64,000 nucleotides of DNA from an uncultured Roseovarius sp. (GTDB taxonomy: Bacteria > Pseudomonadota > Alphaproteobacteria > Rhodobacterales > Rhodobacteraceae): the NCBI GenBank assembly GCA_951812895.1, contig OX638333.1:4072001-4136000 (forward strand), written 5' to 3'. The translations under genes and the position numbers were made by a program. Positions 9,341 through 29,325 of this stretch are shown one piece after another (position 1 is the first letter of the stretch; each line of letters begins with the position of its first letter). The notes below the pieces were generated by a model that saw only the letters and a program-made list of their open reading frames with translations, did no database searches and had not been told where the DNA came from.

Positions 9341-9819
9341 AGCGGCAGTCCTTCAAATTTTTCTTTGCTCCAGCGCCAGTAGACCTGGAGAATTCGGAAC
9401 AGCATCAGGCCAAAGAACATTGGGACGAACATCTGTATCCACCGCTGTTCAATGCCCAGTCCGGGCGTTTGGTAGGTCACGTTGAACAACAGCTGTGTGT
9501 ACGACAGGGTCTGTACGATCATGAAGATCACGAACCCCAGCCACAAAGCGTCGGCAACGACAATACAGGCCACCTGAATGGTCTTGGGCAACCGGTTCAC
9601 CAACAGCGTAATGCGGATATGCGCACGTTCGCGGGTGGCCATCGTCGCGCCCAGGTAAACGGCAAATATCATGCCGTATACCGCCGTTTCCTCTGCCCAG
9701 GCAGCAGCCGAGTGAAAGACAAATCGTAGGATCACCTGTAATAATACGGAACCAACAATGACACACAGAAATATCGCACAAAACACTTCTTCGAAGTGTT
9801 CATCAATCTTGGACAGCAT
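9337..9819 (-). CDS. dctQ: TRAP transporter small permease (DctQ type)
   Basis: 160 aa with four predicted membrane helices, the normal size and topology for DctQ. It contains the family region AAWAEETAVYGMIFAVYLGA and an RERAHIRI motif in the following loop. It couples the large permease to the solute-binding protein. It begins 100 bp after dctP, across a terminator-like hairpin, so it is probably expressed below the binding protein. Confidence 0.9.
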   Translation of the reverse strand: MLSKIDEHFEEVFCAIFLCVIVGSVLLQVILRFVFHSAAAWAEETAVYGMIFAVYLGATMATRERAHIRITLLVNRLPKTIQVACIVVADALWLGFVIFMIVQTLSYTQLLFNVTYQTPGLGIEQRWIQMFVPMFFGLMLFRILQVYWRWSKEKFEGLPL

Positions 9820-9861
9820 CTCCGCCTCCTTCGGGCACGCGCCGAAACGCCACCCATTTTA

Positions 9862-9894
9862 AAAACGGGCCCGTGAACAGCCGCTCACAGGCCC
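9862..9894 (-). terminator. Intercistronic hairpin between dctP and dctQ
   Basis: Read on the minus strand, the arms GGGCCTGTGA and TCACGGGCCC pair over ten positions with one mismatch around an 8-nt loop, and GTTTTT follows. This is an intrinsic-terminator-like or mRNA-stabilising structure. In TRAP operons such elements commonly leave the binding protein in excess of the permeases. Confidence 0.65.
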
Positions 9895-9919
9895 CATTCT
9901 TGTATGTGCTTGCGAGGTG

Positions 9920-10918
9920 TTACTCAGCAGCCGCGCGAATCGCGGTCAGCAGGGCGTTGAAATCGTCGCTACCCTCTTTCGCGTATTGGTCCTGAACCGA
10001 CAGACCAGCCGCGATAAAGTCGGACTTGTCGACCTCAGCTGTCGTCATGCCACCCTCGGTGGTCAGGAAGGTGCGGATCTCTTCGACCTGAGCCGACACG
10101 ATCTCTTTCTGATAGACACCTGCTTCACGCGCCGCGCGCAGCACTGCTTCGCGCTGTGCATCGTCCAGCTTGTTCATGATTCGGTCGCTGGCAAACAGCG
10201 GCGAGAAATAGTTGAAGTGCTCAAGCGCCGAGAAATGTGGCATGAATTCATAGAATTTCTGCGATTTCACAAATGGCGTACCGGCATCGCCGCCATCAAC
10301 GGTACGGGTCTGCAGGGCTGTTGGCGTATCGGCCCAAGGCAGTGGGATCGGAGCGGCCCCAAACGCTTTGAACGTATCCAGCATGACCTGGTTCTTGGGA
10401 ACCCGGATTTTCATGCCTTCCATGTCGGCCATCGACTTGATCGCGTTACGGGAGTTAAAGAAGTCGCGGTCACCAACGACACCATAGGTCAGCAGGTGCA
10501 CGCCAGTTGCATCCTGCAACTGATTGGCAAAACCCTGGCCAACTTCGCCTTCAAGCACTTTGTAGGCGTGCTCTTTGCTTTGGAAAATGTAGGGAAGCAC
10601 AAACGCATCCATCAGCGGGAAGTGCGGCGACACGTTGTTCATCGTGATGATGTACATGTCGACTGTGCCCAGCTGCATCGCCTTGAAAGCCTCGTCTTCC
10701 GAAGTCAGCTGCGCACAGCAGCGGATTTTGACGTCGATGCTACCGCCCGAGTATTCCTCTGCCAGCTCCTCGAACTTGGTGGCGATTGTGCCATATGAAC
10801 TGGTCTCAGCAGTGGCATAGCCGAGATTGATCGTGACGTCGGCTGCGAATGCAGAAGATCCTGTGACAGCCAGCGCAAGCGCAGATGCCGCAAGTGATTT
10901 CAGGCCTAAAGTGGGCAT
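9920..10918 (-). CDS. dctP: TRAP transporter periplasmic solute-binding protein (DctP type)
   Basis: 332 aa. It has a signal peptide (about 1-25, cleavage after SSAFA) and the DctP fold. The conserved segment GMKIRVP carries the Arg that usually binds the substrate carboxylate, and an ALQTRTVDGGDAG region lies in the second lobe. An unusual CysCys pair lies at IRCCAQL near residue 67. It leads the operon with the permeases and the dimethylformamidase-like gene. It does not look like the ectoine-binding UehA. I infer uptake of a carboxylated, possibly amide-bearing compound. Confidence 0.9.
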   Translation of the reverse strand: MPTLGLKSLAASALALAVTGSSAFAADVTINLGYATAETSSYGTIATKFEELAEEYSGGSIDVKIRCCAQLTSEDEAFKAMQLGTVDMYIITMNNVSPHFPLMDAFVLPYIFQSKEHAYKVLEGEVGQGFANQLQDATGVHLLTYGVVGDRDFFNSRNAIKSMADMEGMKIRVPKNQVMLDTFKAFGAAPIPLPWADTPTALQTRTVDGGDAGTPFVKSQKFYEFMPHFSALEHFNYFSPLFASDRIMNKLDDAQREAVLRAAREAGVYQKEIVSAQVEEIRTFLTTEGGMTTAEVDKSDFIAAGLSVQDQYAKEGSDDFNALLTAIRAAAE

Positions 10919-12434: not shown

Positions 12435-13454
12435 ATGCAGGTTACAACAGTCGGCCTCGATTTGGCCAAGAACGTTTTCCATATTCACGGTGTCATGGAG
12501 GATGGATCTGTAGGGTTCAGCCGGTCTTTGCGGCGCAGTCAGATGTTTGCATTTTTCGAACGTCTGGAGCCATGTCTGATCGGCATGGAAGCGTGCGGTG
12601 CGAGCCACTACTGGGCGCGGGAACTGACCAGGCTGGGTCATGAAGTCAGGTTGATAGCACCTGTCTATGTGAAGCCCTATGTCAAGCGCGGCAAGTCCGA
12701 TGCGGCTGACGCAGAGGCGATCTGCGAGGCTGTCACCCGCCCGACCATGCGGTTCGTTGAGGTAAAGTCGCCTGAACAGCAGGCCATTCTTTCATTGCAC
12801 CGAGCGCGTAGCCTAGTCGTTCGACAGAGAACCCAGACGATCAACATGCTGCGTGGTCTGTTGGCGGAGTTCGGCATCGTCTTTGCTCAGGGCGTCGGTC
12901 ACGCCGTCCGGTTTGCAAAGCGTACCACCCAAGAGCAGGCTCTGGACCTACCGCCCGTTGCGCTGGACACCATCATCGACCTTAGCGAACAGATATTGGC
13001 CCTGCATGGGCGGGTGCTCTGGTATGGCCGCAAGCTGACACAAGCTGCGAAATCCGAGCCCCGGATCGACTTGCTTCAGACAATCCCCGGCATTGGGCCG
13101 ATCACGGCGTCGGCCATTGTCGCGACGGTTGGCAGTGCCGCACAGTTTAAGTGCGGCAGAGACTTCTCGGCCTGGTTGGGGCTGACGCCGATCAACCGGT
13201 CGACCGGAGGCAAAGAGAGGCTGGGCCGCATATCGAAGATGGGCGACCGCTACATACGCCACCTGATGGTCGTCGGCATGACCTCCCGCATGAAACAGAT
13301 CAAAAGCGCACCTGAGCGATTTGATCCCTGGTTTGCGGACCTGCTGGAGCGCAAACCCGCAAAGCTCGCGGCAGTGGCCATGGCGAACAAGACAGCGCGG
13401 ATAATCTGGGCGGTGCTCACACGAAATGAGCCCTACAGGATCAGGACCGTCTGA
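12435..13454 (+). CDS. IS110 family transposase (element B)
   Basis: 339 aa, full length. The DEDD residues are Asp9 (VGLD), Glu52 (GMEA), Asp89 and Asp92 (KSDAADAE). The C-terminal domain has IPGIGP (about 217-222) and Ser256 in NRSTGG. A GGAG-type ribosome site (AGGAGAGGAG) lies just upstream of the ATG. All expected catalytic residues are present, so the element may be active. Confidence 0.94.
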   Translation: MQVTTVGLDLAKNVFHIHGVMEDGSVGFSRSLRRSQMFAFFERLEPCLIGMEACGASHYWARELTRLGHEVRLIAPVYVKPYVKRGKSDAADAEAICEAVTRPTMRFVEVKSPEQQAILSLHRARSLVVRQRTQTINMLRGLLAEFGIVFAQGVGHAVRFAKRTTQEQALDLPPVALDTIIDLSEQILALHGRVLWYGRKLTQAAKSEPRIDLLQTIPGIGPITASAIVATVGSAAQFKCGRDFSAWLGLTPINRSTGGKERLGRISKMGDRYIRHLMVVGMTSRMKQIKSAPERFDPWFADLLERKPAKLAAVAMANKTARIIWAVLTRNEPYRIRTV

Positions 13455-13747: not shown

Positions 13748-14665
13748 CTATTGCTGTTTGTCAGCCGCGTTCATTAGATATTTGATGACTGCCAGTCGCT
13801 CGACTCGGTCGGTCACAGCGCCGCGTTCCATAATGGTTCCAGGGATCACACCCGTAGGGTCGGCGATGAACTTGTTCAATTCTTCTATTGCCCAAGTCCC
13901 GCTTTCCGCTTTCATTGCGTCAGAGTACTTGAAGGAGTCTCGCATTGCTTTTTCCCTGCCCACAAATCCGACCAAATCTGGCCCGGCAAATTTGGTTGAG
14001 GGCTGTTTGCCAATTTCCATCGAATGACAAAACAAGCATTCTTCGGCCCGTGCGCGCCCGAGTTTGGGATCAATAGCGTCAAACTCGCTGACCGTTATGG
14101 GCGAGGGTATCAAGGGGGTCGCACCATTTTCCAATAGCAGGGCAACCATTTCGCTACGCCCCTTTCGAACGGCAAGATGAATGGCAGGCTGATCTCCGGT
14201 ACCTCTTCGAAGATTCACATCTGCACCTCGCTTCAGTAAAACTCTTGCCGTATCCATCGCGCCGCGTTCAGCAGCGTCATGGATCGGTGCATTGCCAAAA
14301 TCCCCCCCGCGCGTGTTGGGGTCTGCTCCCCGATCAAGTAACATACTGACAATGTTTGCATGGTTATTGCGGGCAGCGATTTGCAGTGCTGAACCAAAAT
14401 CCGTCATCGCATCGGGTGGTGCACCAACCTCCAAAAGGAATTCAACGGCATCGGGATGGCCGCGCTGCGCTGCAAAGTAGATTGGACGAACCAGCGTATC
14501 GGGGTCCGGGTTGCTGCCTTCAGGAAGCGCCATACGCAGCGCTTCGACATCGCCTGCCAGAGCCATCTTGAGAATGTCCTGTGATACGGCGATACTAGGC
14601 AGCCCAAAAAACACGCAAAATGTAGCGGCGAACGCCTTCTTGGTGGCGTAGCGGAATAAATCCAT
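13748..14665 (-). CDS. Secreted ankyrin-repeat / cytochrome c fusion protein
   Basis: 305 aa. A signal peptide (about 1-28) is followed by four to five ankyrin repeats (about 30-185, with GADPNTRG and GADVNLRR loops). The C-terminal cytochrome c-like part (about 200-300) has one covalent haem motif, CLFCH (210-214), and Met279 (GTIM) as likely sixth ligand. The protein should be periplasmic with one haem c. The partner bound by the ankyrin face and the redox role are unknown. A second protein of this design is at 35296-36267. IS element B ends about 45 bp beyond its stop. Confidence 0.8.
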   Translation of the reverse strand: MDLFRYATKKAFAATFCVFFGLPSIAVSQDILKMALAGDVEALRMALPEGSNPDPDTLVRPIYFAAQRGHPDAVEFLLEVGAPPDAMTDFGSALQIAARNNHANIVSMLLDRGADPNTRGGDFGNAPIHDAAERGAMDTARVLLKRGADVNLRRGTGDQPAIHLAVRKGRSEMVALLLENGATPLIPSPITVSEFDAIDPKLGRARAEECLFCHSMEIGKQPSTKFAGPDLVGFVGREKAMRDSFKYSDAMKAESGTWAIEELNKFIADPTGVIPGTIMERGAVTDRVERLAVIKYLMNAADKQQ

Positions 14666-15229: not shown

Positions 15230-16954
15230 ATGCCTAATCTTCCTTCACGTCCTTCAGTTGAGAATCTGAAGAAGCAAGCAAAGCGGCTTGTGAAATCTGC
15301 TCATGCCGAAGAACCTAGTGCTTTAGCACAGGTTGGTCCTTACGTCGGAGACCCTTCAAAAATCTCGCTCCAACAGGCACATCTTGTGCTCGCTCGTGAG
15401 TATGGCTTTTCAAGCTGGACCAAACTCAAGCGCCATATAGAGTCGGGTTCCTGGCAAGTCGAAACACAGGAGCAACGTGCAAATCGGTTTCTAGACCTTG
15501 CCTGTATCCATTATGCGCCAGACCCAAACAGCCGAAGCGCCGCCGAATTCGAGCAAGCTGCTGCGCTTCTCCAAACCCACCCAGAGATTGTGGAATATAG
15601 CCTGCACACGGCGGCTGCTTCCGGGAGCCTTGCAGTACTGCAGGACATACTTTCAAAATACCCAAATCAAGTCGATTTGAAGAGCGGTCCATTCGATTGG
15701 ACACCTTTGATGTACGCTGCTTACGCGCGACTTCCTGGTGTTTCCACATTGGATGTAGGCAAGGCCCTGATTGACGCAGGTGCTGATCCAAACGCTCATT
15801 TCATGTCCCATGGTACGTATCGTTTCGCTGTTCTGACGGGTGTTTTTGGAGACGGTGAAGGTGGCTTAGTGCGACAACCACCACATCCGGACATGGTGCC
15901 ATTTGCGCGCGCGCTTTTGGATGCCGGTGCAAATCCCAATGATAGTCAAGGTGCCTATAACCGCTGCTTTAGCCCAGACGATACGCATTTGGAATTAATG
16001 CTTGAATATGGCCTTAATGACAGTGACCCGTCCGACTGGTGGCTTGCCGAAGTGGAGAACGATCCTCAGGATCATCGGACAATGCACTTTCAACTGATCA
16101 TCGCGTTGCGTTGGGGCTTCGCCGACCGCGCACGTCTGTTGATAGAGCATGGCGTTGATATCAATACCCCTGACAACAATTACTACCCCACTTACACGGT
16201 TGGCTACACACCCTATCAAGTCGCCTTGATGAGGGGCATGTCCGACATTGCCGAATTGATCAAAGCAAAGGGCGGGCGGGCAGATCCATTGGGAAGTTAT
16301 GAGGCATTTCAAGCCGCGTGTATGCGTGGCGACCTGAAGGCCGCTTCCGACTTGGCTGCAAAACACATGGGAAAAGAACCGGAGAAGGACCATGAGCTAC
16401 TATGCGAAGCCGCTGGAAACGGCAATCTCGCAGCTGTCCAAACGATGATCGAACTTGGATTCGAGCTTAGTCCTAGAGGAAAGAGAACACCGCTGCATAT
16501 GTCGGCGTTCAAGGGGCATCTCGACGTTGTCCGGGCTTTGATCAATGCGGGGGCGGATACCGCTATGCGTGATCCCGATTACCACACACCGCCATTTGTC
16601 CATGCAATGCACAACTTCCAAGAGGAAACTGCGGAACTGTTATTGCAGCAACCGATGGATCTCTTTGCGGCGTCGGCAACGGGAAACAAAGAACAGATTG
16701 CGGCAATCCTGAATGAAGACCCAAGCTTGGTGAACACTCGTTTCAGAACGGTTCGAACGGGTCCACAGGAGAGCTTTGAGCGCGACTGGGTCCCTCCACT
16801 TTGGTACGCGGCGGTAAACGGCAGCCTCGATGCTGCAAGATTGCTCCTTCAGCATGGGGCCGATCCCGATATCGCAGATGCAGAGGGCCAAACAATCTCA
16901 GACTATGCAAAAGAGGCAGGCCAGAATGAGATTGTGGACTTGCTAAATTCGTGA
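15230..16954 (+). CDS. Large ankyrin-repeat protein
   Basis: 574 aa, no signal peptide, so probably cytoplasmic. The N-terminal segment (about 1-75: LPSRPSVENLKKQAK ... AREYGFSSWTKLKRHI) is a recurrent leader of bacterial ankyrin proteins. Ankyrin repeats follow through the rest of the protein, with clear units at about 165-190, 305-345, 405-465 and 525-570. The AAGGAGG ribosome site fixes the start. The target is unknown; these proteins are scaffolds or inhibitors. It diverges from the ankyrin-cytochrome gene, which hints at a shared theme only. Confidence 0.83.
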   Translation: MPNLPSRPSVENLKKQAKRLVKSAHAEEPSALAQVGPYVGDPSKISLQQAHLVLAREYGFSSWTKLKRHIESGSWQVETQEQRANRFLDLACIHYAPDPNSRSAAEFEQAAALLQTHPEIVEYSLHTAAASGSLAVLQDILSKYPNQVDLKSGPFDWTPLMYAAYARLPGVSTLDVGKALIDAGADPNAHFMSHGTYRFAVLTGVFGDGEGGLVRQPPHPDMVPFARALLDAGANPNDSQGAYNRCFSPDDTHLELMLEYGLNDSDPSDWWLAEVENDPQDHRTMHFQLIIALRWGFADRARLLIEHGVDINTPDNNYYPTYTVGYTPYQVALMRGMSDIAELIKAKGGRADPLGSYEAFQAACMRGDLKAASDLAAKHMGKEPEKDHELLCEAAGNGNLAAVQTMIELGFELSPRGKRTPLHMSAFKGHLDVVRALINAGADTAMRDPDYHTPPFVHAMHNFQEETAELLLQQPMDLFAASATGNKEQIAAILNEDPSLVNTRFRTVRTGPQESFERDWVPPLWYAAVNGSLDAARLLLQHGADPDIADAEGQTISDYAKEAGQNEIVDLLNS

Positions 16955-17383
16955 ATGCCTCCGATTAAATTTGGCAAGTTTTGCGCTCGCAGCGAAGGTC
17001 CGCAACGCGGGCTGCAAACGCAGCATCGAAAGTGGTCAGCGAATGTCTCTTATGGGCCGTCTATCCCAATAAGTTAGGGAAACATTACCGGTGCAGATTG
17101 CATGCTCAACTTTGCCAATTAAGATTCAATGTGATCCTATGGGAGAGATCCGTATGCGTGGACCGGTGAAACACGCAAACGTTTCACGTATGATCTTGCT
17201 TCGGTCCCGACCTGCCGAATTTCCAGCCCTCATGAATTGACTACAAGACTGGAATGCTTACCGTTTGGCAAACGATTTCTTATGCAGCGACACCCAATGA
17301 GCCGTCACCTTCAATCCAAACTTGATCGCCTCGGGCCCGCCGAGTTGTCTAGGCTGGAACCAGTTGGGTTCGACAGCAACAGA
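16955..17383. other. Gene-free gap with repeat copy
   Basis: It holds a diverged copy (about 16984-17062) of the repeat seen at 12024-12103, including GCAGCATC and GAATG-N8-GGGCCG at 17041-17059. The rest is upstream DNA of the LysR gene. A longer in-frame N-terminal extension of that gene (from 17237) is open, but the family start argues against it. Confidence 0.55.
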
Positions 17384-18271
17384 ATGCGGCGAGGTTTACC
17401 GCCCCTGCAAACGCTTGTTGCATTCGAGGCCGCGGCCCGATTGAGGAGCTTTACACTCGCTGCGGCAGAACTGAACCTCACCCAACCTGCCATCAGTCAA
17501 CAAGTCAAACTTCTGGAGCACCGGCTTGGAGTGGCACTGTTTCGACGTCGGAACAATCAGATCGAGCCGACCGAGCAGGGAGAGAATTTCGCCGAAACAG
17601 TCACCCGTATACTCGACCACCTCAGTGAAAGCGTGAATGATCTGAACCCCGAAGGAGTGCGGTCGAGTTTGACAGTCAGTTTGCTGCCCTCGTTTGCATC
17701 CACATGGTTTGCGACCCGGTCAGGGCGCTTCACCACGCTGAACCCGACAATTGACCTGATCGTGCTATCAACCGTTGCCCAAACGGGCTTTGGCCAGGAA
17801 GGCGCGGATGTCGCGATCCGCTGGGGTCCGGGTGGTACGGAAGATGTATATGAGGAGAAATTACTGGAAGAACGGCACTTGCTGGTGGCGTCGGCAGAGG
17901 TTGCATCCGCTTTGGGGCCAGCCCCACCCATGGATGATCTGAACAAGTATCCCTTTGTGCATGATACGAATTTCAGCGAGTGGCGAGCAGTTATTGAATT
18001 GAACGGCGGCGACCCTGACCGGTTCGAACAGGGGCAGTATTTCGGCGATGCCAGTGCGACGCAGGCCGCTATTGCTACGGGCCATGGAATTGGCGTCGTT
18101 CGCGATGTTCTTGCCGGGCACTTACTGGCGACCGGGCAGTTGGTCGCTTTGCCATTCCAGTCAGTCAAGGGACCGCATGCCTATCATTTTTTGTGCCCCG
18201 AAGGCAGGATGGAGCAGCCACGTGTTCAGGAGTTTCTATCCTGGCTGAGAGCAGAAGCGCGATCTGCATAA
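17384..18271 (+). CDS. LysR family regulator, GcvA-like
   Basis: 295 aa from the ATG at 17384, where the typical GcvA start (MRRGLPPLQTLVAFEAAARL) begins. In-frame starts upstream at 17282 or 17297 would add a non-homologous leader. The winged helix (SFTLAAAELNLTQPAISQQVKLLEHRLG) is followed by an effector domain. It lies 95 bp before the monooxygenase-led operon on the same strand and is its probable regulator. The effector is unknown. Confidence 0.85.
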   Translation: MRRGLPPLQTLVAFEAAARLRSFTLAAAELNLTQPAISQQVKLLEHRLGVALFRRRNNQIEPTEQGENFAETVTRILDHLSESVNDLNPEGVRSSLTVSLLPSFASTWFATRSGRFTTLNPTIDLIVLSTVAQTGFGQEGADVAIRWGPGGTEDVYEEKLLEERHLLVASAEVASALGPAPPMDDLNKYPFVHDTNFSEWRAVIELNGGDPDRFEQGQYFGDASATQAAIATGHGIGVVRDVLAGHLLATGQLVALPFQSVKGPHAYHFLCPEGRMEQPRVQEFLSWLRAEARSA

Positions 18272-18366
18272 GAATTTCTTTGGCAAGTCCAAAGGAGTGA
18301 CCATTTGGCATGGGTCTGGGTTTAAGGGACACTTAGGCCGTAGAAACATGGGACCGGAGAGTGCCG

Positions 18367-19428
18367 ATGGATTTTTCGCTTTTCAATTTGATGACCAAGC
18401 CCGTGGATGGATCAGGCCACGTCGACGTGTTCCAGCAGATGCGCACAATGACGCGAATGGTGGACGAAGCCGGATTTGATGTGGCGTGGTTTGCCGAACA
18501 CCACCTCTCAAACTATAGTATTTCACCGTCACCCCTGATGACCACCGCGCACATGGCAGGCCAGACAAAGCGCATCAAACTGGGCCCTGCCGTGGTGGTG
18601 ATGCCGTTTTACGAACCATTGCGGTTGGTTGAAGATATCTGCCTGACCGATCAATTGACCGAGGGCCGGTTGGTTCTCGGGCTGGGAACCGGGTATCAGC
18701 CGCGTGAATTCAAGAAATTCGGATTTGAGATCGACGACCGGTTGATGCGCGGGCTTGAGATTTGGGATTGCATTGAACAAGGCGTCTATGGTGGCACCGT
18801 CGATTACAACGGCGACCATATCCAGATTCAGGATGCGGCCTTGTCGATTGCGCCGGTGCAGGATCGCATCCGGACCTTCGCTGTCGGCAATGCCCCAGAA
18901 ATGCGCCAGAAAATGATAGATTATGGTGCTGAAACACTGACCACCCCTGCCATCGGGCCGAATTCCATCCTTGCAACCGCGCGCAGGCTCTATCAGGAAA
19001 CGCGGGTTGAAAACGGGTTGAGTGGCGAAGACTTCCCCTTTGCCGTTCAGCGTTATGTCTACGTCGCCAAAGACAAGGCTGATGCCCGGGCCGCTGCCGA
19101 GCAAGTGCTGATCCATGCGCGCATGGCAAACAATATGCGACAGGCCGATCCGCAGATCGACGGCTCTGACCTCAAGATCGTTCCGTTCGAGAATGAGCCA
19201 GATGTCGACACGATCCTTGAGCGCGCCATCATCGGCGATGCAGAAGAGGTCACGAAGCGTATCGTGGCCGAAGCGCGCGAGTTCGGCATCACTCATCTGA
19301 GCGTCTTCATGCAAATCGCTTCGATCCCCTTTGCCAATACGCTGCGCTCGCTTGAGGTCTTCTGTGATCAGGTCATGCCAGCCGTAAACGCGGCCCTTGA
19401 AACGGACCAAACGGCATTGGCGTCATGA
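18367..19428 (+). CDS. Luciferase-like (LLM class) flavin-dependent monooxygenase
   Basis: 353 aa TIM-barrel protein. The ATG at 18367 is preferred over the GTG at 18361 because GGAGAG lies 7-8 nt ahead. Family features: EHH at the active site (WFAEHHLSNY), GPAVVVMPF, RLVLGLGTGYQPREF with flavin/phosphate contacts, and a C-terminal segment with FMQIAS. It uses reduced FMN from a separate reductase, not seen here, to oxygenate a substrate, often at a C-S, C-N or C=O centre. First gene of a five-gene operon; its stop overlaps the next start (ATGA). Confidence 0.86.
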   Translation: MDFSLFNLMTKPVDGSGHVDVFQQMRTMTRMVDEAGFDVAWFAEHHLSNYSISPSPLMTTAHMAGQTKRIKLGPAVVVMPFYEPLRLVEDICLTDQLTEGRLVLGLGTGYQPREFKKFGFEIDDRLMRGLEIWDCIEQGVYGGTVDYNGDHIQIQDAALSIAPVQDRIRTFAVGNAPEMRQKMIDYGAETLTTPAIGPNSILATARRLYQETRVENGLSGEDFPFAVQRYVYVAKDKADARAAAEQVLIHARMANNMRQADPQIDGSDLKIVPFENEPDVDTILERAIIGDAEEVTKRIVAEAREFGITHLSVFMQIASIPFANTLRSLEVFCDQVMPAVNAALETDQTALAS

Positions 19429-20216
19429 ACGCGCCGAACTATTCACTTGAAGGCAAGGTTGTTCTTGTCACCGGTGCCGCGCAGGGCCTGGGTGCCGCGA
19501 TGGCCGAGGCTTGTGCGGGACAGGGTGCTCAGCTTCACTTGCAGGATCTGAATGCCGACGGCGTGCACTCTACCGCCGAGGCACTTCGGGCCAAGGGATA
19601 TGAGGCCAGTGCGACGGCGTTTGATCTAACTGATTTTTCCGCCTGCGAGACGTGGGTCAAAGAGACAGCGGCCAAAACCGGAGTCATCTGGGGATTGATC
19701 AACAACGCAGGTTTCATCAACCATGGCCATGTTACCAGCCAGACGATTGAGGACTATCAATCCATCTACAACCTGCATGTTTTCGCCCCCTTTGTACTGG
19801 CGCGCGAGGCGGGCAAGGTCATGCAGCAAAATCCGGGGCCACAACGCGGGCGGATCGTTTCTGTCTCATCCATAGCGGCTACACATCCCCGCCCAAGCAT
19901 TGGCAACTATGCTTCATCCAAGGCAGCCATCGCGGGCTTGACGCGATCCCTGGCCGCGGATTTCGGCAAAGATGGCATATGCGCCAACGCCATTGCGCCG
20001 GGGTATGTGCTGACAGCGATCAATCGCAAAATCCTAAGCGACAAGGCGTTCGTCCGCCGGATCGAAAACCGCACCCCTGCCGCCCGCTGGGCCGAACCCG
20101 AGGAAATCGCCGGCCCCGCAGCTTTTCTGATGTCCGAGGCCGCGTCTTACATCAACGGCCAGCTATTGGCGATTGATGGCGGGATGAATGCGTTCCTGCA
20201 ATCGAACGAGGCTTAA
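19425..20216 (+). CDS. Short-chain dehydrogenase/reductase (SDR) 1
   Basis: 263 aa classical SDR. It has TGAAQGLG for cofactor binding (about 17-24), NNAG, a catalytic Ser in VSSIA, YASSK for the Tyr/Lys pair, and a C-terminal IDGG. LQDLN at the end of beta-2 has Asp, favouring NAD(H). It overlaps the monooxygenase gene by 4 bp and ends 3 bp before the second SDR, so all are cotranscribed. It presumably oxidises a hydroxyl or reduces a carbonyl in the same pathway. Confidence 0.88.
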   Translation: MNAPNYSLEGKVVLVTGAAQGLGAAMAEACAGQGAQLHLQDLNADGVHSTAEALRAKGYEASATAFDLTDFSACETWVKETAAKTGVIWGLINNAGFINHGHVTSQTIEDYQSIYNLHVFAPFVLAREAGKVMQQNPGPQRGRIVSVSSIAATHPRPSIGNYASSKAAIAGLTRSLAADFGKDGICANAIAPGYVLTAINRKILSDKAFVRRIENRTPAARWAEPEEIAGPAAFLMSEAASYINGQLLAIDGGMNAFLQSNEA

Positions 20217-20219
20217 CGT

Positions 20220-21023
20220 ATGAAGCGCTTGCAAGGCCGCGTCGCACTGGTCACTGGGGCCGGTTCAATGAACGGGGGGCTTGGCAATGGCAAGGCTACG
20301 GCTATTCGTCTGGCTCAGGAAGGGGCCGCAATTTGCGTGCTTGACGTTGATCTGGACGCGGCGGAAGAAACCTGTGCAATAATACGTGCCGAAGGTGGGT
20401 CAGCGGCCGCTGTCGCTGGCGATGTCACCAACGAGGTGCAAGTTTCATCTGCTGTTGCCGAGTGTCTTGGTGAATTCGGCCAGATCGACATTCTGCAAAA
20501 CAATGTAGGCATCTTGCGTGCGGGCGGGGCGATGGATACCTCCGTTGCCGACTGGGATCTGATGGCCCATGTGAATATGAAGGCGGTGTTCCTGCCCACC
20601 AAACACGTTCTGCCGCATTTTATAGAACGCAGGTATGGCATCGTCACTAATGTCTCGTCCATCGCTGGGCAGCGCTATCTTGGCACTCCCTACATTGGCT
20701 ACAACGCCACAAAGGGGTCCATCATTTCGTATACCCGCAACCTTGCGGCGGAGGTCGCCCCGCATGGCATTCGTGCCAATACGGTCCTTCCGGGGTTCAT
20801 CGATACGCCTATGGCGCGCAACATCATCGAACAAAACACTGAAAACCCCAAGCAAATAGACTGGGAAGCATTGGATCAGCAACGCGCTGCCCGCATTCCA
20901 TTGGGCCGGGTGGGCACGCCATGGGATGTAGCGAACGCAGCGGTTTTTCTGGCCAGCGACGAGGCGTCCTATATCACCGGCACCGAAATCACAGTCGATG
21001 GTGGAGTCTCATGCCGAGTGTGA
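20220..21023 (+). CDS. Short-chain dehydrogenase/reductase (SDR) 2
   Basis: 267 aa. The nucleotide-binding loop is lengthened (TGAGSMNGGLGNGKA) and the usual NNAG is NNVG; Ser in VSSIAG and YNATK keep the catalytic triad. LDVDLD suggests NAD(H). It is only distantly like the SDR just upstream, so the two probably act on different steps. Its end overlaps the methyltransferase start by 13 bp. Confidence 0.87.
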   Translation: MKRLQGRVALVTGAGSMNGGLGNGKATAIRLAQEGAAICVLDVDLDAAEETCAIIRAEGGSAAAVAGDVTNEVQVSSAVAECLGEFGQIDILQNNVGILRAGGAMDTSVADWDLMAHVNMKAVFLPTKHVLPHFIERRYGIVTNVSSIAGQRYLGTPYIGYNATKGSIISYTRNLAAEVAPHGIRANTVLPGFIDTPMARNIIEQNTENPKQIDWEALDQQRAARIPLGRVGTPWDVANAAVFLASDEASYITGTEITVDGGVSCRV

Positions 21024-22525
21024 GATCGGGCAGAGCGGCGCGCCTGCGGGATCAATCCGCCGTGCGGCCCCGCCTTGCGCCGGTTCTGAGCAGACTCAAT
21101 CCAGTCGAAGTTGTCGACGCCGAGGCGGTTGAGCGTATTCACGATGCTTCTTGCGCCATACTCGAAGAAGTCGGGATCGAATTTCGTGATCCCATCGCGC
21201 TGAACCACTGGCGCGAGATTGGGGCAGAGGTGGCGGGTGAACGGGTGCGAATTGATCGTGCGATGCTCATGGAACTGATCGCCAAGGCGCCTGCTGATTT
21301 TTATGTGGAGGGGCGCGGTGCGAGTTCCGGCTTTACCATGGGCGGCAACACAACCGTGTTCTGCCCGATGACCGGCGCACCATTTACGCGTGACCTGGAT
21401 GGGGTGCGCCGGTCAACCACCGAGACTGATGTAATAAATTTCGCGCGCCTCACGCAGGCCTGCCCCAGTTTTCATATGGCAGGCGGGTTTACTTGCGAGC
21501 CAATGGATATCGCCGTCCCACACCGGCATCTAGTGATGATGCGGCATCATCTGGTGGAAACTGACTTGCCACTATTTGGGATCGGCACGTCGAGAGAACG
21601 GGCCGAAGACTGCATCGCGATGGCGCGGATCGCGACGGGTGACTTGATGGAAAATGCCGTCGCAATCTGGATGCATGCCTCGGGCAATTCGCCGCTGGTT
21701 TGGGATCAGGCGATGATGGACGGCGCAAGGGCCTTTGCCGATGCGGGGCAGGCTGTTTTGTGCTCTCCTTTCGTTCTGGCTGCGGCGAACACGCCGGCAG
21801 ATGTCGCTGCTACTATTGCGCAGGTCAATGCCGAAGCGTTGGCCGCCATAGCTTACACCCAACTCTATCGCCCAGGCACGCCGACGGTTTACGGCCAATA
21901 TACGGTTTCCATTTCCATGCAGTCTGGTGCGCCAATGGCTGGCACGCCCGAAGTGGCGTTGATCACCTCGGTCATCGGACAGCTTGCACGGAAATATCGC
22001 CTGCCCTGGCGCACCACGGCCAACCATGCCTCGTCCAAATCCTTTGATGCGCAATCGGGTTTTGAGGGGGCGGCAGCCATGATGACCGGAATAAACGCAG
22101 GCGCTAACCTGATGCTCCATGCAGGCGGCTGGGACGAGGGCGGGCTGGTGATCTGCTACGGAAAATTCATCGCCGATGATGAGCAAAATCAAATGATGGC
22201 CAGATACGCCGGAGGTATTTCGTTCGACCGGTTTGACGAGGCGCTTCAGGCCGTGCGCAGGATCGGGCCAGGCGGCCATTATCTTGGCGACAGTTTCACT
22301 CTGGACCATTTCCGAGATGCCTTTGTCATGCCCGAGGTGATGGACTTCTCGAGTTTTGAACAATGGAGCGCAGCAGGTTCTGAAGACATGGCTACAAGGT
22401 GCCGCCGAAAAGCCCGCACGCTGTTGGAAGACTTTGAACCACCCGAATATGAACCCGATATGCGCAATGAGCTGGATGAATTTGTGGCGCGGCGCAAATC
22501 AGAAATCGATCCAACCATCAGGTGA
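21011..22525 (+). CDS. MttB-family (trimethylamine methyltransferase-like) protein, non-pyrrolysine
   Basis: 504 aa from the ATG at 21011, which overlaps the previous gene by 13 bp; longer in-frame extensions are not family-like. It matches the MttB superfamily TIM barrel throughout, including SSKSFDAQSGFE near the active site. The frame has no internal amber codon, so it is not a pyrrolysine enzyme. Characterised relatives demethylate quaternary amines such as glycine betaine, passing the methyl group to a corrinoid protein. No corrinoid protein or second methyltransferase is encoded nearby, so the acceptor is unclear. It pairs with the DddP-like gene 6 bp downstream. Confidence 0.85.
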   Translation: MPSVRSGRAARLRDQSAVRPRLAPVLSRLNPVEVVDAEAVERIHDASCAILEEVGIEFRDPIALNHWREIGAEVAGERVRIDRAMLMELIAKAPADFYVEGRGASSGFTMGGNTTVFCPMTGAPFTRDLDGVRRSTTETDVINFARLTQACPSFHMAGGFTCEPMDIAVPHRHLVMMRHHLVETDLPLFGIGTSRERAEDCIAMARIATGDLMENAVAIWMHASGNSPLVWDQAMMDGARAFADAGQAVLCSPFVLAAANTPADVAATIAQVNAEALAAIAYTQLYRPGTPTVYGQYTVSISMQSGAPMAGTPEVALITSVIGQLARKYRLPWRTTANHASSKSFDAQSGFEGAAAMMTGINAGANLMLHAGGWDEGGLVICYGKFIADDEQNQMMARYAGGISFDRFDEALQAVRRIGPGGHYLGDSFTLDHFRDAFVMPEVMDFSSFEQWSAAGSEDMATRCRRKARTLLEDFEPPEYEPDMRNELDEFVARRKSEIDPTIR

Positions 22526-22531
22526 ATCTAG

Positions 22532-23848
22532 ATGAACCGGTTTTCAATCAAGCAACCCAAAATCACGCCCGGCTTCAAGGCGGACGGCACCCCACTGGAC
22601 AATGACAGGGTGGAAATCGGGCCGACCGACAAAGCATTCAAAGAATGGGCCTTGCTTGGTCTGACACCTCCACATCTACCAACCATGCGAGACTACCGTT
22701 TGGGCCGGGTCGTGCAGGAGCTGCAAAAGCGCGATTTGGCGGGTGTTCTGATGTTTGATCCTATCAATATTCGCTATGCGCTCGATGCCAGCAACATGAT
22801 GCTTTGGACCGCCCATAACTTATCTCGCGCTTCATTCGTTTCGGCCGACGGTTACGCGATCTTGTGGGAACAACACCGCGCCAGCCATCTGGCGGATTTC
22901 CTGCCGAACATCAACGAAATCCGCAAAGGTGGTGCTGGATTCTTTTACTTTGAAACCGGTGACAAGACTGCAGAAAGAGCCCACGACTTTGCCCGTGAAG
23001 TGGCAGATGTATTGCGCGAACATGGCGGCGGCAATCGCAGGCTCGCCGTCGACAAAATAGAAGTTGATGGCGTCGCTGCACTTCAGGCTGAAAACATCGA
23101 CATCATCTCCGGGATGGAAGTAATGGAACATGCCCGCCTCATCAAAGGCCCTGACGAAATCCGCGCGATGCGCTGTGCCTTGGCAACTTGCGAGATTGCC
23201 GTGGCTGAAATGGAAAAGGCCCAAAGACCGGGGATTTCGGAAAACGAGCTTTGGTCGATTCTGCATCGCGAAAACATTGCCCGTGGCGGCGAATGGATTG
23301 AAACCCGCATTCTGAATTCCGGCCCGCGCACCAACCCCTGGATGCAGGAATGTGGCCCAAGGATCATTCAGGCCGGGGACCTCATCGCCTTCGATACGGA
23401 CATGGTAGGCGTCTACTCGATGTGTGCTGACATCTCACGCACCTGGCTTTGTGGCGATGGTCAGCCTACGGATGAGCAAAGACACCTCTACCAGGTTGCC
23501 TATGAGCATATCACGCGGAATTTCGATCTGCTGAAACCTGGCGTCAGTTTCACCGAGATCACGCAAACCGGCCATCGCTTGCCCGAAGAGTTTCGTGCGC
23601 AACGTTATGGCTTGATGCTGCACGGCATCGGCATGTGCGACGAATTCCCCTGCATCTATTATCCCGAAGACTTCATCGAAGGTGCATTCGATTATGTCCT
23701 TCAGCCGGGCATGACACTTTGCGTCGAAGCATACATCGGTGCGGTGGGTGGCAGAGAGGGGGTCAAACTGGAAGATCAAGTTCTGATCACTGAGGATGGT
23801 GCCGAGAATCTCACACACTACCCATTTGACACTAGATTTTTAACTTAG
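22532..23848 (+). CDS. dddP: DddP-like M24 enzyme (DMSP lyase family)
   Basis: 438 aa. It follows the DddP family from end to end, including the N-terminal NDNDRVEIGPT-like segment. From memory, Ruegeria lacuscaerulensis DddP uses Asp295, Asp297, Asp307, His371, Glu406, Glu421 for metals and Tyr366/Asp377 in catalysis. Here Asp288, Asp290, Asp300, His364, Glu399, Glu414, Tyr359 and Asp370 fit with a constant offset of 7. DddP cleaves dimethylsulfoniopropionate to dimethyl sulfide and acrylate. The active site is complete, but its place in an MttB/SDR/monooxygenase operon is unusual, so a related onium substrate is possible. Last gene of the operon. Confidence 0.8.
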   Translation: MNRFSIKQPKITPGFKADGTPLDNDRVEIGPTDKAFKEWALLGLTPPHLPTMRDYRLGRVVQELQKRDLAGVLMFDPINIRYALDASNMMLWTAHNLSRASFVSADGYAILWEQHRASHLADFLPNINEIRKGGAGFFYFETGDKTAERAHDFAREVADVLREHGGGNRRLAVDKIEVDGVAALQAENIDIISGMEVMEHARLIKGPDEIRAMRCALATCEIAVAEMEKAQRPGISENELWSILHRENIARGGEWIETRILNSGPRTNPWMQECGPRIIQAGDLIAFDTDMVGVYSMCADISRTWLCGDGQPTDEQRHLYQVAYEHITRNFDLLKPGVSFTEITQTGHRLPEEFRAQRYGLMLHGIGMCDEFPCIYYPEDFIEGAFDYVLQPGMTLCVEAYIGAVGGREGVKLEDQVLITEDGAENLTHYPFDTRFLT

Positions 23849-26619: not shown

Positions 26620-27129
26620 TTAATCTTGCTTTCCCGCGATCAGGGCAATCGGTGGCACACCCTGCCCCTTCACTTGTTTGGTCACGACATAGGTAAAGTA
26701 GCGGGCGAGGCCGATGCGGGCGTTGAGCATTTCGTCGATCAGCCGCTGATAGGCGTCGATATCGCGGATCACGATCTGCAGGATATAGTCAAAGCCCCCG
26801 CCAAGCGCCCAGCATGCCAGAACCTCGTCGTAGCGTTTTATTGCCGCCTCAAAGGCCTGAAAGCTGGCGGCCGTGTGATCCGAAAGTTCGACCGTAACAA
26901 AGATCGATATATGCGTCCCTAGTTTGCGCAGATTTATGTCTGCACGGTAACGCTCGATCAGCCCGGCCTTTTCAAGTTTCTTCAATCGCTCCCAACAGGG
27001 CGTCGGCGACAATCCCACACGCTCGGCCAACGCTGTTTTCGTTATGCGCCCATCCGTCGAAAGCACCCGAAGAATATCAAGATCACGGGCATCCAGAGTG
27101 ATGGCAGCTGCGTTCGGTTTCGATTTCAT
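26620..27129 (-). CDS. asnC: Lrp/AsnC regulator of the ectoine genes (AsnC/DoeX type)
   Basis: 169 aa. It has an N-terminal winged helix (LDILRVLSTDGRITKTALAERVGLSPTPCWERLKKLEKAG) and a C-terminal ligand-binding ferredoxin-like domain. The ATG at 27129 lies 2 bp after the eutD stop; an upstream start would overlap eutD. In Ruegeria and Halomonas an AsnC-type regulator follows the ectoine-degradation genes and senses a pathway intermediate. That role fits here, although eutE, normally between eutD and asnC, is missing. Confidence 0.87.
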   Translation of the reverse strand: MKSKPNAAAITLDARDLDILRVLSTDGRITKTALAERVGLSPTPCWERLKKLEKAGLIERYRADINLRKLGTHISIFVTVELSDHTAASFQAFEAAIKRYDEVLACWALGGGFDYILQIVIRDIDAYQRLIDEMLNARIGLARYFTYVVTKQVKGQGVPPIALIAGKQD

Positions 27130-27131
27130 AC

Positions 27132-28319
27132 CTAATCTTTCACGACCATTTTGCGTGGTACATTGGCGAGGCATTCGGGGCCTGTTTTGCCGATGCGGAT
27201 GCTTTCGGTAATCTCAAAGCCCCAGTCCTCCATCCAGAGGCCGGTCATAAAATGCAGGGTCATGTTTTCCTGCAGAACCGTTTTGTCGCCGGACCGTAAA
27301 GACATGGTACGTTCGCCCCAATCCGGGGGATAGGACAGGCCAATCGGATAGCCCGTGCGACTGTCTTTCTCGATACCGTATGTCCTGAGCACGCCAAAGA
27401 ACGCATTGGCGATATCCTCGCACAGGTTTCCCTCTTTCGCGACTTCCAGCCCGGCCTCCATCCCTTCGAGAACGGCCTTTTCCGCATCGAGGAAGGTTTG
27501 CGTCGGCTTGCCCAGAAACACAGTGCGTGACAGCGGGCAGTGATAGCGGTGATAGACACCGGCGATTTCGAAAAACGTGCCTTCGCCTGATTTCATCGGC
27601 GTGTCATCCCAGGTCAGATGGGGTGCCGCCGCATCCGGGCCAGAGGGCAGCAACGGCACGATGGCCGGATAATCACCGCCCGCACCGATTTCAGGATCAT
27701 AACGCAGGCCGGCATCGTAAATTTCCGCTGCCAGATCGCATTTGCGCAGACCGGGCTCAACCTTGTCGAAAACCCGTTCATGCATGCGCCCGACGATGCG
27801 GCCCGCGATGCGCATGTAATCCAGTTCGGTTTCCGATTTTATTGCACGCTGCCAGTTTACCAGCGCGTTCGCATCCACCATATGGGCATTTGGAAGATGC
27901 CACATGAGCGAGGCATAAGCCGCCGCAGTGAACCAGTAATTGTCCATCTCGACGCCAATCGTGCCCTTGTCCAGCTTGCGATCGACCAACTGGGCCGACA
28001 GATAGTCCATCGGGTGGCGCTCGGTTGATTGCACGTAGTGATCGGGGTAGCCGATGATGTTGGCCGGATCCATGAAACAGGTTCTGAGCGCGCCCTTCGC
28101 ATCCTGACCGCGCCCGAACCAGATCGGTTCCCCGTCCAGAGTCAGCACCACGCACTGATGCACGTAAAATGACCACCCGTCATAGCCGGTCAGCCAGTTC
28201 ATGTTGGACGGATCCGAGATGATCAACAGATCAATGCCGCGCGCCTGCATGGCTGTTCGGGTTTTGGCGATGCGTTGTGCATATTCATCACGCGTAAAGT
28301 ATAGTTTTGGTTCCGGCAT
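27132..28319 (-). CDS. eutD: Ectoine hydrolase (EutD/DoeA)
   Basis: 395 aa from the ATG at 28319 (MPEPKLYFTRDEYA); an in-frame start further upstream runs into the eutC end. It is an M24-fold enzyme without the peptidase metal site. Glu251 (FFEIAG) sits where the covalent nucleophilic glutamate of EutD has been reported (Glu255 from memory), with His260 at the conserved distance. It opens the ectoine ring to N-acetyl-diaminobutyrate. It lies between eutC (13-bp gap) and asnC (2-bp gap), as in roseobacter operons, except that the partner deacetylase eutE is absent from this window. Confidence 0.88.
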   Translation of the reverse strand: MPEPKLYFTRDEYAQRIAKTRTAMQARGIDLLIISDPSNMNWLTGYDGWSFYVHQCVVLTLDGEPIWFGRGQDAKGALRTCFMDPANIIGYPDHYVQSTERHPMDYLSAQLVDRKLDKGTIGVEMDNYWFTAAAYASLMWHLPNAHMVDANALVNWQRAIKSETELDYMRIAGRIVGRMHERVFDKVEPGLRKCDLAAEIYDAGLRYDPEIGAGGDYPAIVPLLPSGPDAAAPHLTWDDTPMKSGEGTFFEIAGVYHRYHCPLSRTVFLGKPTQTFLDAEKAVLEGMEAGLEVAKEGNLCEDIANAFFGVLRTYGIEKDSRTGYPIGLSYPPDWGERTMSLRSGDKTVLQENMTLHFMTGLWMEDWGFEITESIRIGKTGPECLANVPRKMVVKD

Positions 28320-28332
28320 GATTTTACCCGAT

Positions 28333-29325
28333 TTAGCTTGTGAAAGTGGCGCCTTTGCCAGCAACTTCGGCACGCTGTCTGGCAAGGGTTGCAATGGCGG
28401 TGTCCTGCACGCCCGTGCCGGTCAGGTCAGCGATCACGATGTCACCGTCTGACCGGCGCCCGGGGGCTTTGCCGGATGTGATGTCTCCCAGCTCGGAAAA
28501 CGTCTGGTCATCGGGAAACAACCCGGCCTCCAGAGCGCTGCGCAGCTCGCCTTTTACGGCGCATTGCGACTGGCTGTCAGGCACGTAAAGCGTTGCTTTG
28601 CTCAGGCAATCGGGCTCCAGTTCTACCTTGTGCTCCTGGTCCGATCCCATCGCGATGATCAGCTGCCCGGGTCTGAGCCAGTCGCTTTGGACCAGTGGCG
28701 AAGACGAAGGCGTGGTTGTCACGACAATGTCGGCGGAAGAAACGGCTTGGGTCACGTCGCTGCTGGCGGTCACGTCCAGCCCCAGCTCGGCACGCAGATC
28801 GGCTGCGGTGGCCTCAGCCTTGCTTATATCCCTTGCCCAGATCACTGCGGTCCTGATCTCACGTACAAGCATCAGCGCCTTGAGCTGAAGCTTGGCCTGC
28901 ACACCCGCGCCGATGATGCACACGCGGCTGGCATCTTGCCGCGCCAGATGGCGCGCAGAAACCGCGCCCGCTGCGGCTGTGCGCACGTCGGTCAGATATC
29001 CATTGTCCAACAGCAGCGCCTCCAACATGCCCGTCTTGCTGGCAAACAACACCATCAGGCCAGATGAGCTGGGCAGGCCGAGCTTGGGATTGTCAAAGAA
29101 CCCGGGGCTCATCTTCATCGCAAAACTGTCGACGCCGGGGACATAGGCCGACTTCACACACACCTCACCGTTATGATCGGGCACCATCAATGTCATGATC
29201 GGCGGCATGACAACATTGCCCCCCGCCAGCGTCGTGAACCCCTGTTCAACACAGTTCACCGCGTCGGTATCCAGCGGCACCAGATCCCGCAGCTCAGATT
29301 CGGTCAGTATCTTGATATCAGGCAT
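28333..29325 (-). CDS. eutC: Ornithine cyclodeaminase-like protein of the ectoine operon (EutC)
   Basis: 330 aa of the ornithine cyclodeaminase/mu-crystallin family. It has a Rossmann motif (VCIIGAGVQAKLQLKAL) and SAYVPGVDSFAMKMSPGF near the active site. In (hydroxy)ectoine operons EutB and EutC are thought to convert hydroxyectoine to ectoine. The start codon directly follows the eutB remnant's stop (TAGATG), so the original coupling survives although eutB is no longer complete. Confidence 0.87.
   Translation of the reverse strand: MPDIKILTESELRDLVPLDTDAVNCVEQGFTTLAGGNVVMPPIMTLMVPDHNGEVCVKSAYVPGVDSFAMKMSPGFFDNPKLGLPSSSGLMVLFASKTGMLEALLLDNGYLTDVRTAAAGAVSARHLARQDASRVCIIGAGVQAKLQLKALMLVREIRTAVIWARDISKAEATAADLRAELGLDVTASSDVTQAVSSADIVVTTTPSSSPLVQSDWLRPGQLIIAMGSDQEHKVELEPDCLSKATLYVPDSQSQCAVKGELRSALEAGLFPDDQTFSELGDITSGKAPGRRSDGDIVIADLTGTGVQDTAIATLARQRAEVAGKGATFTS

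What the first reader, a model, noticed from the sequence alone, without database searches (positions are those of the whole stretch)
18367..23848. Five-gene operon: luciferase-like monooxygenase, two SDRs, non-Pyl MttB, DddP-like lyase
The genes overlap or lie within 6 bp of each other and sit behind a LysR gene, so they are one transcription unit. The enzyme types together fit degradation of a methylated onium compound (for example a sulfonium or quaternary ammonium zwitterion): methyl removal or lyase cleavage, dehydrogenation of the carbon chain, and flavin oxygenation of a thio or amino product. I know of no described pathway with this gene set. There is no corrinoid protein, so the MttB-like protein would need an unlinked partner or another acceptor.
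Basis: partly seen in the sequence, partly recalled or inferred. Interest (0 to 1): 0.82.

Follow-up and report, generated by a model that had tools for sequence, protein, structure and literature searches.

The report
Betaine-breakdown operon with luciferase-like oxygenase
A bacterium carries a compact run of five enzyme genes that looks like a little-studied way of taking apart a methylated, probably proline-like, osmoprotectant; four of the genes form an older unit found in a few relatives, and the fifth, a relative of an enzyme that releases dimethyl sulfide, looks like a later addition.

Summary
In detail: a LysR gene is followed by LLM monooxygenase, SDR1, SDR2, non-Pyl MttB and a DddP-like M24 protein, 3-13 bp apart or overlapping. 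Neighbourhood searches change the picture. Close LLM relatives (74-88%) turned up in five other sampled genomes; all five carry SDR2 downstream. Four have the LysR and a conserved element before LLM; there MttB is intact (1) or a remnant (3). None has the DddP-like gene there, so the older unit is LysR-LLM-(SDR1)-SDR2-MttB and the DddP-like gene an add-on seen only here. The missing corrinoid partner is explained: 14 MttB matches and one corrinoid protein in the genome, an unlinked MtgC-like one, the arrangement shown in Ruegeria pomeroyi. Substrate clues point to a proline-type betaine: 7 of the 10 other MttBs in this one's clade have HpbD (4-hydroxyproline-betaine epimerase) or DHDPS-family neighbours, and in one relative LLM-SDR2 lies just before HpbD. 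But the two nearest MttB relatives outside the operon, and a Leisingera one, lack both genes, and MttB is decaying in three relatives. A sulfonium substrate is not excluded. No function was tested. New variant of a known kind.

The parts
17297..18271 (+). LysR-type regulator (GcvA-like), likely specific regulator of the operon
   Evidence: PF00126/PF03466; 67-75% identical orthologue in the same place in 4 of 5 relatives; start chosen by the G615 orthologue; the longest ORF starts at 17237
18267..18308 (.). candidate LysR operator: CATAAGAATTTCTTTGGCA (18267-18285), AGGA (18293-18296), CATTTGG (18302-18308); its first bases overlap the LysR stop codon
   Evidence: mostly invariant columns in the 5 LysR-bearing loci, window included; not seen before the LLM of G176, which has no LysR there. 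Binding not tested
18367..19428 (+). LLM: luciferase-like FMN-dependent monooxygenase, no named subfamily
   Evidence: PF00296 183.8 bits; under the cut-off of all 25 NCBIfam models shown of 28 matched; orthologues 74-88% in 5 genomes
19425..20216 (+). SDR1, short-chain dehydrogenase
   Evidence: PF13561/PF00106; 74-80% orthologue in G342, G481, G615; absent in G053 and G176
20220..21023 (+). SDR2, short-chain dehydrogenase
   Evidence: PF13561/PF00106; 69-82% orthologue downstream of LLM (G053, G176) or of SDR1 (G342, G481, G615), 5 of 5 relatives
21011..22525 (+). non-pyrrolysine MttB-family methyltransferase
   Evidence: PF06253 568.7 bits, no in-frame stop; trees; intact orthologue in G053, remnants in G342, G481, G615
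22532..23848 (+). DddP-like M24-fold protein, addition seen only in this copy of the operon
   Evidence: NCBIfam DddP 605.1/600; 79% to L017, outside the clade of the own canonical DddP; metal ligands and Tyr366/Asp377 kept

Best explanation
A LysR-controlled catabolic operon for a proline-type (ring) betaine, probably one with a ring hydroxyl. Inferred steps: MttB takes one N-methyl from the quaternary ring nitrogen and passes it to the cell's shared, unlinked corrinoid protein MtgC and on to tetrahydrofolate; SDR1 and SDR2 oxidise (or invert) the ring hydroxyl; LLM, fed FMNH2 by a flavin reductase, oxygenates the resulting carbonyl or iminium and opens the ring. The DddP-like protein is a later recruit at the 3' end, perhaps an eliminating lyase on the opened product or on a related onium osmolyte. 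Shown: gene order, its conservation, MttB clade, absence of a linked corrinoid protein and presence of one unlinked. Inferred: substrate, every reaction, use of MtgC by this MttB, and the regulator's role.
For: MttB trees: the window and G053 copies fall in a clade of 9 rows (98/100) or, with three rows added, 12 rows (100/99); 7 of the 10 other rows have HpbD-like (5) and/or DHDPS-family (4) neighbours (the two Aminobacter rows are almost identical), against 0 of 9 own-genome MttBs outside the clade whose surroundings were fetched (3 more were not fetched). G176 has LLM, SDR2 and HpbD in a row, HpbD matching PDB 4h2h at 2.6e-163; 4H2H is 4-hydroxyproline betaine 2-epimerase (PMC11961199, one passage). 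The own genome's cluster L124 also pairs MttB with two SDRs and a monooxygenase, there a P450. The hydroxyproline route uses DAAO, DHDPS and ALDH superfamilies (PMC4113996, passages); L124 has members of all three. The two MttBs nearest outside the operon (57% G200, 53% G054) lie near a DAO and beside an OYE-type flavoprotein. Flavin reductase divergent from LysR in 3 of 5 relatives. MtgC-like protein with DUF1638 and MtgE-like neighbours in this genome, as in R. pomeroyi (PMC12478193).
Against: HpbD is next to LLM in only 1 of 6 loci, near a contig end. G200, G054 and a Leisingera MttB (46%, inside the clade) have neither HpbD nor DHDPS in the stretch held. MttB is a remnant in three relatives and absent in G176 while LLM and SDR2 stay open, so methyl removal by it is not always needed. 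SDR similarity to the SDRs of L124 is only generic (34%). No transporter, epimerase or hydroxyproline gene lies in the window operon. I recall no luciferase-type enzyme with this chemistry. No flavin reductase is linked in the window (best own match 42%).
Confidence: 0.38

Rival explanations
1. One reading: the operon degrades a DMSP-like compound, with the DddP-like protein as a true lyase and MttB as an alternative demethylase, LLM oxidising a thio product.
For: The protein passes NCBIfam's DddP equivalog cut-off and keeps all six metal ligands plus Tyr366 and Asp377 (residues from PMC4108388, passages). DddP-family genes lie near MttB genes in a few other loci: L028, L044 (MttB directly upstream), L146 and a broken own copy in L111.
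Against: DddP-like gene absent from the operon in 5 of 5 relatives. The eight residues are kept in 31 of 32 other family sequences aligned, so they do not mark DMSP lyases. DddP-MttB nearness is rare: 0 of 40 sampled loci and 4 of 23 others, two of these four inside the canonical clade; with 14 MttB matches in 4.5 Mb about 6% is expected by chance in this genome (my estimate). This MttB is not in the clade of the DddP-near MttBs L028, L044, L062 and own 2366366. The genome already has a canonical DddP (891 bits).
Confidence: 0.16
2. The core LLM-SDR1-SDR2 acts on something unrelated to betaines (for example a ketone, alcohol or sulfonate), and MttB is a passenger that is being lost.
For: MttB is a remnant in G342, G481 and G615, a different part left in each, while LLM, SDR1 and SDR2 stay open. 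LLM cassettes with SDRs and a reductase, and no MttB in the annotated stretch, exist on Ochrobactrum (39%) and Rhizobium (33%) plasmids.
Against: MttB or its remnant follows SDR2 in all five LysR-bearing loci (2 intact, 3 remnants), so the link is old; G176 ties LLM-SDR2 to HpbD by a second route; the plasmid LLMs are distant.
Confidence: 0.24
3. The substrate is a chain-type quaternary amine (glycine betaine, carnitine, choline or similar), as for characterised MttB-family enzymes.
For: MtcB, MtyB and MtgB act on such compounds (abstract of PMC8604678 as listed; PMC12478193); the second-ranked solved relatives include glycine betaine methyltransferase 9yce (first is 4yyc, putative trimethylamine methyltransferase).
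Against: Most of this MttB's clade is linked to ring-betaine type genes; the own genome's other MttBs examined are not.
Confidence: 0.14

Closest known systems
(Hydroxy)proline betaine catabolic clusters with HpbD (4-hydroxyproline betaine 2-epimerase)
   Same: MttB of the same clade; HpbD just after LLM-SDR2 in G176; own-genome cluster L124 has MttB, HpbD, OYE, P450, SDR, SDR, DAO with DHDPS and ALDH
   Different: No HpbD, DHDPS, ALDH or DAO in the window operon; LLM where L124 has a P450; the published proline betaine route that I recall uses Rieske-type demethylases (recalled; Kumar et al. 2014 not held)
MtgBCD glycine betaine demethylation of Ruegeria pomeroyi (PMC12478193)
   Same: MttB-family protein without linked corrinoid protein; one MtgC-like protein beside DUF1638 and a homocysteine methyltransferase elsewhere in the genome
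   Different: Presumed other substrate, and an oxygenase/dehydrogenase set next to the methyltransferase. Whether the R. pomeroyi MtgB proteins fall in another MttB clade was not tested
DMSP lyase DddP
   Same: Fold family, length, six metal ligands, Tyr366 and Asp377; just over the NCBIfam cut-off
   Different: Outside the clade of the own canonical copy; 23 positions invariant in 8 canonical sequences are changed in both the window protein and L017, several next to H371/D377; activity unknown
Two-component LLM monooxygenases (RutA/RutF, SfnG; TgnA-type recalled)
   Same: PF00296 and, in three relatives, a HpaC/RutF-like flavin reductase next to LysR
   Different: Far below the cut-offs of the NCBIfam LLM models shown, such as SfnG 42.0/383

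Membership tests
DMSP lyase DddP | NCBIfam NF043017 equivalog cut-off (600 bits) | tested here: met
   605.1 bits, only 5 above the cut-off; canonical own copy 891.3
DMSP lyase DddP | metal ligands D295 D297 D307 H371 E406 E421 and Y366, D377 | tested here: met
   8 of 8; also all 8 in 31 of 32 other sequences aligned, so not diagnostic (L064 lacks D377)
DMSP lyase DddP | groups with the own canonical DddP and its roseobacter relatives | tested here: not met
   pairs with L017 (100/100) outside the 11-row clade (100/100) that holds the own canonical copy
DMSP lyase DddP | releases DMS from DMSP | not testable with these tools
   needs an assay
MttB superfamily, non-Pyl | PF06253 over its full length, no in-frame amber codon | tested here: met
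   568.7 bits, positions 2-499 of 500, no stops inside
Pyl-dependent trimethylamine methyltransferase | TIGR02369 cut-off and amber codon | tested here: not met
   262.9 bits against 525; no in-frame stop
MttB corrinoid systems | cognate corrinoid protein encoded nearby | tested here: not met
   only PF02607 match of the genome is at 3786826, about 0.3 Mb away
Roseobacter MtgC-type shared corrinoid system | single MtgC-like protein with DUF1638 and MtgE-like neighbour | tested here: met
   (189.4 bits to an MtgC model, under its cut-off of 370); that this MttB uses it is inferred
(Hydroxy)proline betaine (Hpb) pathway | MttB in a clade whose members are linked to HpbD or DHDPS | tested here: inconclusive
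   clade well supported (98/100, 100/99); 7 of 10 other rows linked, but not the two nearest (G200, G054) nor Leisingera
(Hydroxy)proline betaine (Hpb) pathway | HpbD, DHDPS, ALDH or DAO in the same operon | tested here: not met
   none in the window operon; HpbD and a DAO only in G176's version; the set is elsewhere in the genome (L124)
Two-component FMN monooxygenase | linked flavin reductase | tested here: inconclusive
   present in G053, G342, G481; none seen next to the operon in the window, best own match 42%

The most novel reading that the evidence does not exclude
An undescribed oxygen-dependent route in which dehydrogenases turn a ring hydroxyl of a proline-type betaine into a ketone and a luciferase-type enzyme splits the ring by oxygen insertion, with a DddP-like protein recruited as a carbon-nitrogen eliminating lyase; that would make some members of the DddP family amine lyases and not DMSP lyases.
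Probability: 0.09. Interest if true: 0.78.

Novelty: new variant of a known kind. Interest (0 to 1): 0.48.

Why it matters
This genome has 14 MttB-family matches, and the substrates of most such genes in aerobic marine-type bacteria are unknown although the family takes part in turnover of nitrogen osmolytes. The operon gives one of them a concrete substrate guess, a regulator with a candidate operator and a nameable unknown (the LLM). It is also a reminder that passing a DddP model cut-off and keeping its catalytic residues does not by itself settle that a gene makes DMS, which bears on gene-based estimates of DMS production.

Tried and rejected
Homarine and trigonelline (N-methylpyridinium ring opening by a luciferase-type enzyme) were my first idea, from memory. 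The listings of two paper searches (2 of 2 and 20 of 25 papers shown) showed no described homarine gene set, and the LLM's rarity among the sampled genomes argues against a widespread route; not excluded. Conserved DddP neighbourhoods as the key to the operon: none of the 55 loci shows an LLM match or both SDRs in the stretch held, so dropped. DddP-MttB pairing as a rule: I first took it for recurrent, but the counts (0 of 40 sampled loci, 0 of 20 controls, 4 of 23 others chosen by likeness or kinship) do not show more than chance; only L044, with MttB directly upstream on the same strand, looks like an operon. Promoter and terminator scan: promoter-like sites no more than in shuffles (4 against 3.5); 17 terminator-like sites against 8.3, 15 of them on the minus strand; not used. 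Composition: the DddP-like gene is slightly poorer in GC (0.538) than MttB (0.582) but like the window mean (0.547); no proof of transfer. Structure prediction and fold search were not run. The plasmid collection held no close LLM (best 39%).
Full report
Observation. The window holds a LysR gene and five tightly packed enzyme genes on the plus strand. Pfam and NCBIfam name them luciferase-like monooxygenase (LLM), two short-chain dehydrogenases, MttB family and M24/DddP. Start codons fixed by comparison or spacing give 18367, 19425, 20220, 21011 and 22532, with overlaps or gaps of 3-13 bp.

Conservation. The LLM was searched in sampled whole genomes: 295 of the family, 390 of the order, 54 of one genus, 318 of the class, and 4 and 1 in the genera of two holders. 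These sets overlap and were not deduplicated. Relatives of 74-88% identity turned up in five genomes besides the own one: G053, G176, G342, G481 and G615; the class search gave only one distant match (39%, G742). Their surroundings: SDR2 follows LLM directly (G053, G176) or after SDR1 (G342, G481, G615), 5 of 5; LysR before LLM in 4 of 5 (not G176, whose contig starts about 1.5 kb upstream); SDR1 in 3 of 5; MttB intact in 1 of 5 (G053), a remnant after SDR2 in 3 of 5 (residues 71-189 in G342, 279-438 in G481, 1-72 in G615), none found in G176; the DddP-like gene in 0 of 5. A flavin reductase runs away from LysR in G053, G342 and G481; the latter two are 74% and 84% identical to the first. So the older unit is LysR-LLM-(SDR1)-SDR2-MttB, scattered thinly through the family, and the DddP-like gene belongs to this genome's copy only, as far as sampled.

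Regulation. In the five LysR-bearing copies, the window included, the gap before LLM keeps CATAAGAAttTCTTtGgCA, AGGA and CATTTGG (window 18267-18308) while much of the rest has drifted; the 140 bases before the LLM of G176, which lacks the LysR, do not show it. This is a candidate operator; binding is untested. Its first bases include the LysR stop codon.

The methyltransferase. No amber codon interrupts it. The genome has 14 MttB-family matches, one of them with a stop inside, and a single PF02607 corrinoid protein, whose neighbours are DUF1638 and a homocysteine methyltransferase and which resembles MtgC models without reaching their cut-offs. In Ruegeria pomeroyi a similar unlinked arrangement serves both methionine synthesis and glycine betaine demethylation (PMC12478193; outline and first part of Results read). 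The absence of a linked corrinoid protein is therefore not odd for this group of bacteria.

Which substrate. In a 21-row tree the window MttB pairs with that of G053 and falls in a 9-row clade (98/100) with MttBs of Aminobacter (2, almost identical), Mesorhizobium (2), Phaeobacter, Yoonia and the own-genome gene at 1154110. With Leisingera, G200 and G054 added and one long row left out (23 rows), the clade has 12 rows (100/99), and G200 and G054 are the nearest kin of the window-G053 pair. The plasmid rows are 7 of 74 records, picked from its top 20. Of the 10 rows other than window and G053, 7 have HpbD-like (5) and/or DHDPS-family (4) neighbours; Leisingera (about 7 kb each side), G200 and G054 (near a contig end) do not. 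Of nine own-genome MttBs outside the clade whose surroundings were fetched (mostly 6-10 kb each side), none has (three were not fetched). HpbD is named from PDB 4h2h, matched at 2.6e-163 by the G176 protein; 4H2H is called 4-hydroxyproline betaine 2-epimerase in PMC11961199 (one passage). The HpbD-like proteins of G176, the own genome and Aminobacter are 49-55% identical to each other, so the last two may differ in function. The hydroxyproline route with DAAO, DHDPS and aldehyde dehydrogenase superfamilies is described in PMC4113996 (passages). The own genome has such a cluster at 1147-1162 kb: GntR, DHDPS, ALDH, P5C-reductase-like, MttB, HpbD-like, OYE flavoprotein, P450, SDR, SDR, DAO. In G176 the order is FAD oxidoreductase (DAO type, by my reading of its sequence), LLM, SDR2, HpbD. 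G200's and G054's MttBs lie near a DAO and beside an OYE flavoprotein. These lines point to a ring betaine of the proline kind. They are context, not activity.

The DddP-like protein. It passes the NCBIfam DddP cut-off by 5 bits; a canonical copy elsewhere in the genome scores 891. Its nearest relative found (79%) is in a Hyphomicrobiales genome, between an MFS transporter and a TauD dioxygenase plus DAO. Both lie outside the 11-row clade with the own canonical copy. The six metal ligands and Tyr366/Asp377 (PMC4108388, passages) are all kept, but so are they in 31 of 32 other sequences aligned, so this says little. Twenty-three positions invariant in eight canonical sequences are changed in both the window protein and L017, several next to the catalytic motif. 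Nearness to MttB genes: 0 of 40 DddP loci taken from the list, 0 of 20 control stretches, and 4 of 23 further loci (L028, L044, L146 and the broken own copy in L111), plus the window and L062 at about 6.4 kb. L146's DddP and the broken own copy are of the canonical clade, so the pairing does not mark a separate subfamily, and overall it is not shown to exceed chance. L044 (LysR, MttB, DddP-like) and L025 (OYE flavoprotein directly upstream) are the two tight arrangements. That some members serve amine pathways is a lead only.

Mechanism. My reading: demethylation by MttB to MtgC, oxidation of a ring hydroxyl by the SDR pair, oxygenation and ring opening by LLM with reduced flavin. Only the gene order and kinships are shown. 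The decay of MttB in three relatives says that its step can be done by another enzyme or dispensed with, and is the strongest point against a central role for it.

Not in print. Searches of the open PMC library listed no paper that by title and abstract describes this gene set; subscription papers and preprints were not covered, and Kumar et al. 2014 on proline betaine was not held. PMC11337228 (passages) gave nothing of use. Recalled and from no call: Rieske demethylases of the published proline betaine route, the trigonelline enzymes and the name StcD that my scripts use for the OYE flavoproteins.

Noticed in passing
G000:C1:1147000-1162000 (L124): Complete-looking (hydroxy)proline betaine type cluster with MttB, HpbD-like epimerase, OYE flavoprotein, cytochrome P450, two SDRs and a DAO; it has a P450 where the window operon has an LLM.
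   Followed up: partly
G000:C1:2362453-2363771 (L111): A further, interrupted DddP gene of canonical type, divergent from a dimethylglycine-dehydrogenase-like gene and an MttB gene.
   Followed up: partly
G000, whole genome: 14 MttB-family matches (one with a stop inside) and one detectable PF02607 corrinoid protein.
   Followed up: yes
window 26620-29325: Ectoine degradation genes: ectoine hydrolase DoeA (another M24 enzyme, 777 bits) and EutC, with an AsnC-like regulator by eye, 3 kb downstream of the operon.
   Followed up: no
window 5841-10918: Dimethylformamidase-like protein (PF20254) and a TRAP-type solute-binding protein (PF03480) with two likely TRAP membrane genes between; IS110-type transposases at 4617-5675 and 12435-13454.
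   Followed up: no
window 13748-14665 and 15230-16954: Ankyrin-repeat protein and a second that looks like one, just upstream; an ankyrin gene also precedes the LysR-MttB cluster of two Aminobacter plasmids (L115, L130).
   Followed up: no
L044, L028, L146: DddP-family genes near MttB genes, two of them (L044, L146) also near dimethylglycine-dehydrogenase-like genes; not shown to be more than chance overall, but L044 looks like a LysR / MttB-DddP operon.
   Followed up: partly
L025:5873-7911: OYE flavoprotein gene split into two frames directly upstream of a DddP-like gene; frameshift or assembly error.
   Followed up: no
L114 (Ochrobactrum plasmid CP061774.1): A distant LLM (39%) with two SDRs upstream and an NAD(P)H-dependent oxidoreductase downstream, ABC transporter genes nearby: a possible parallel cassette.
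   Followed up: partly
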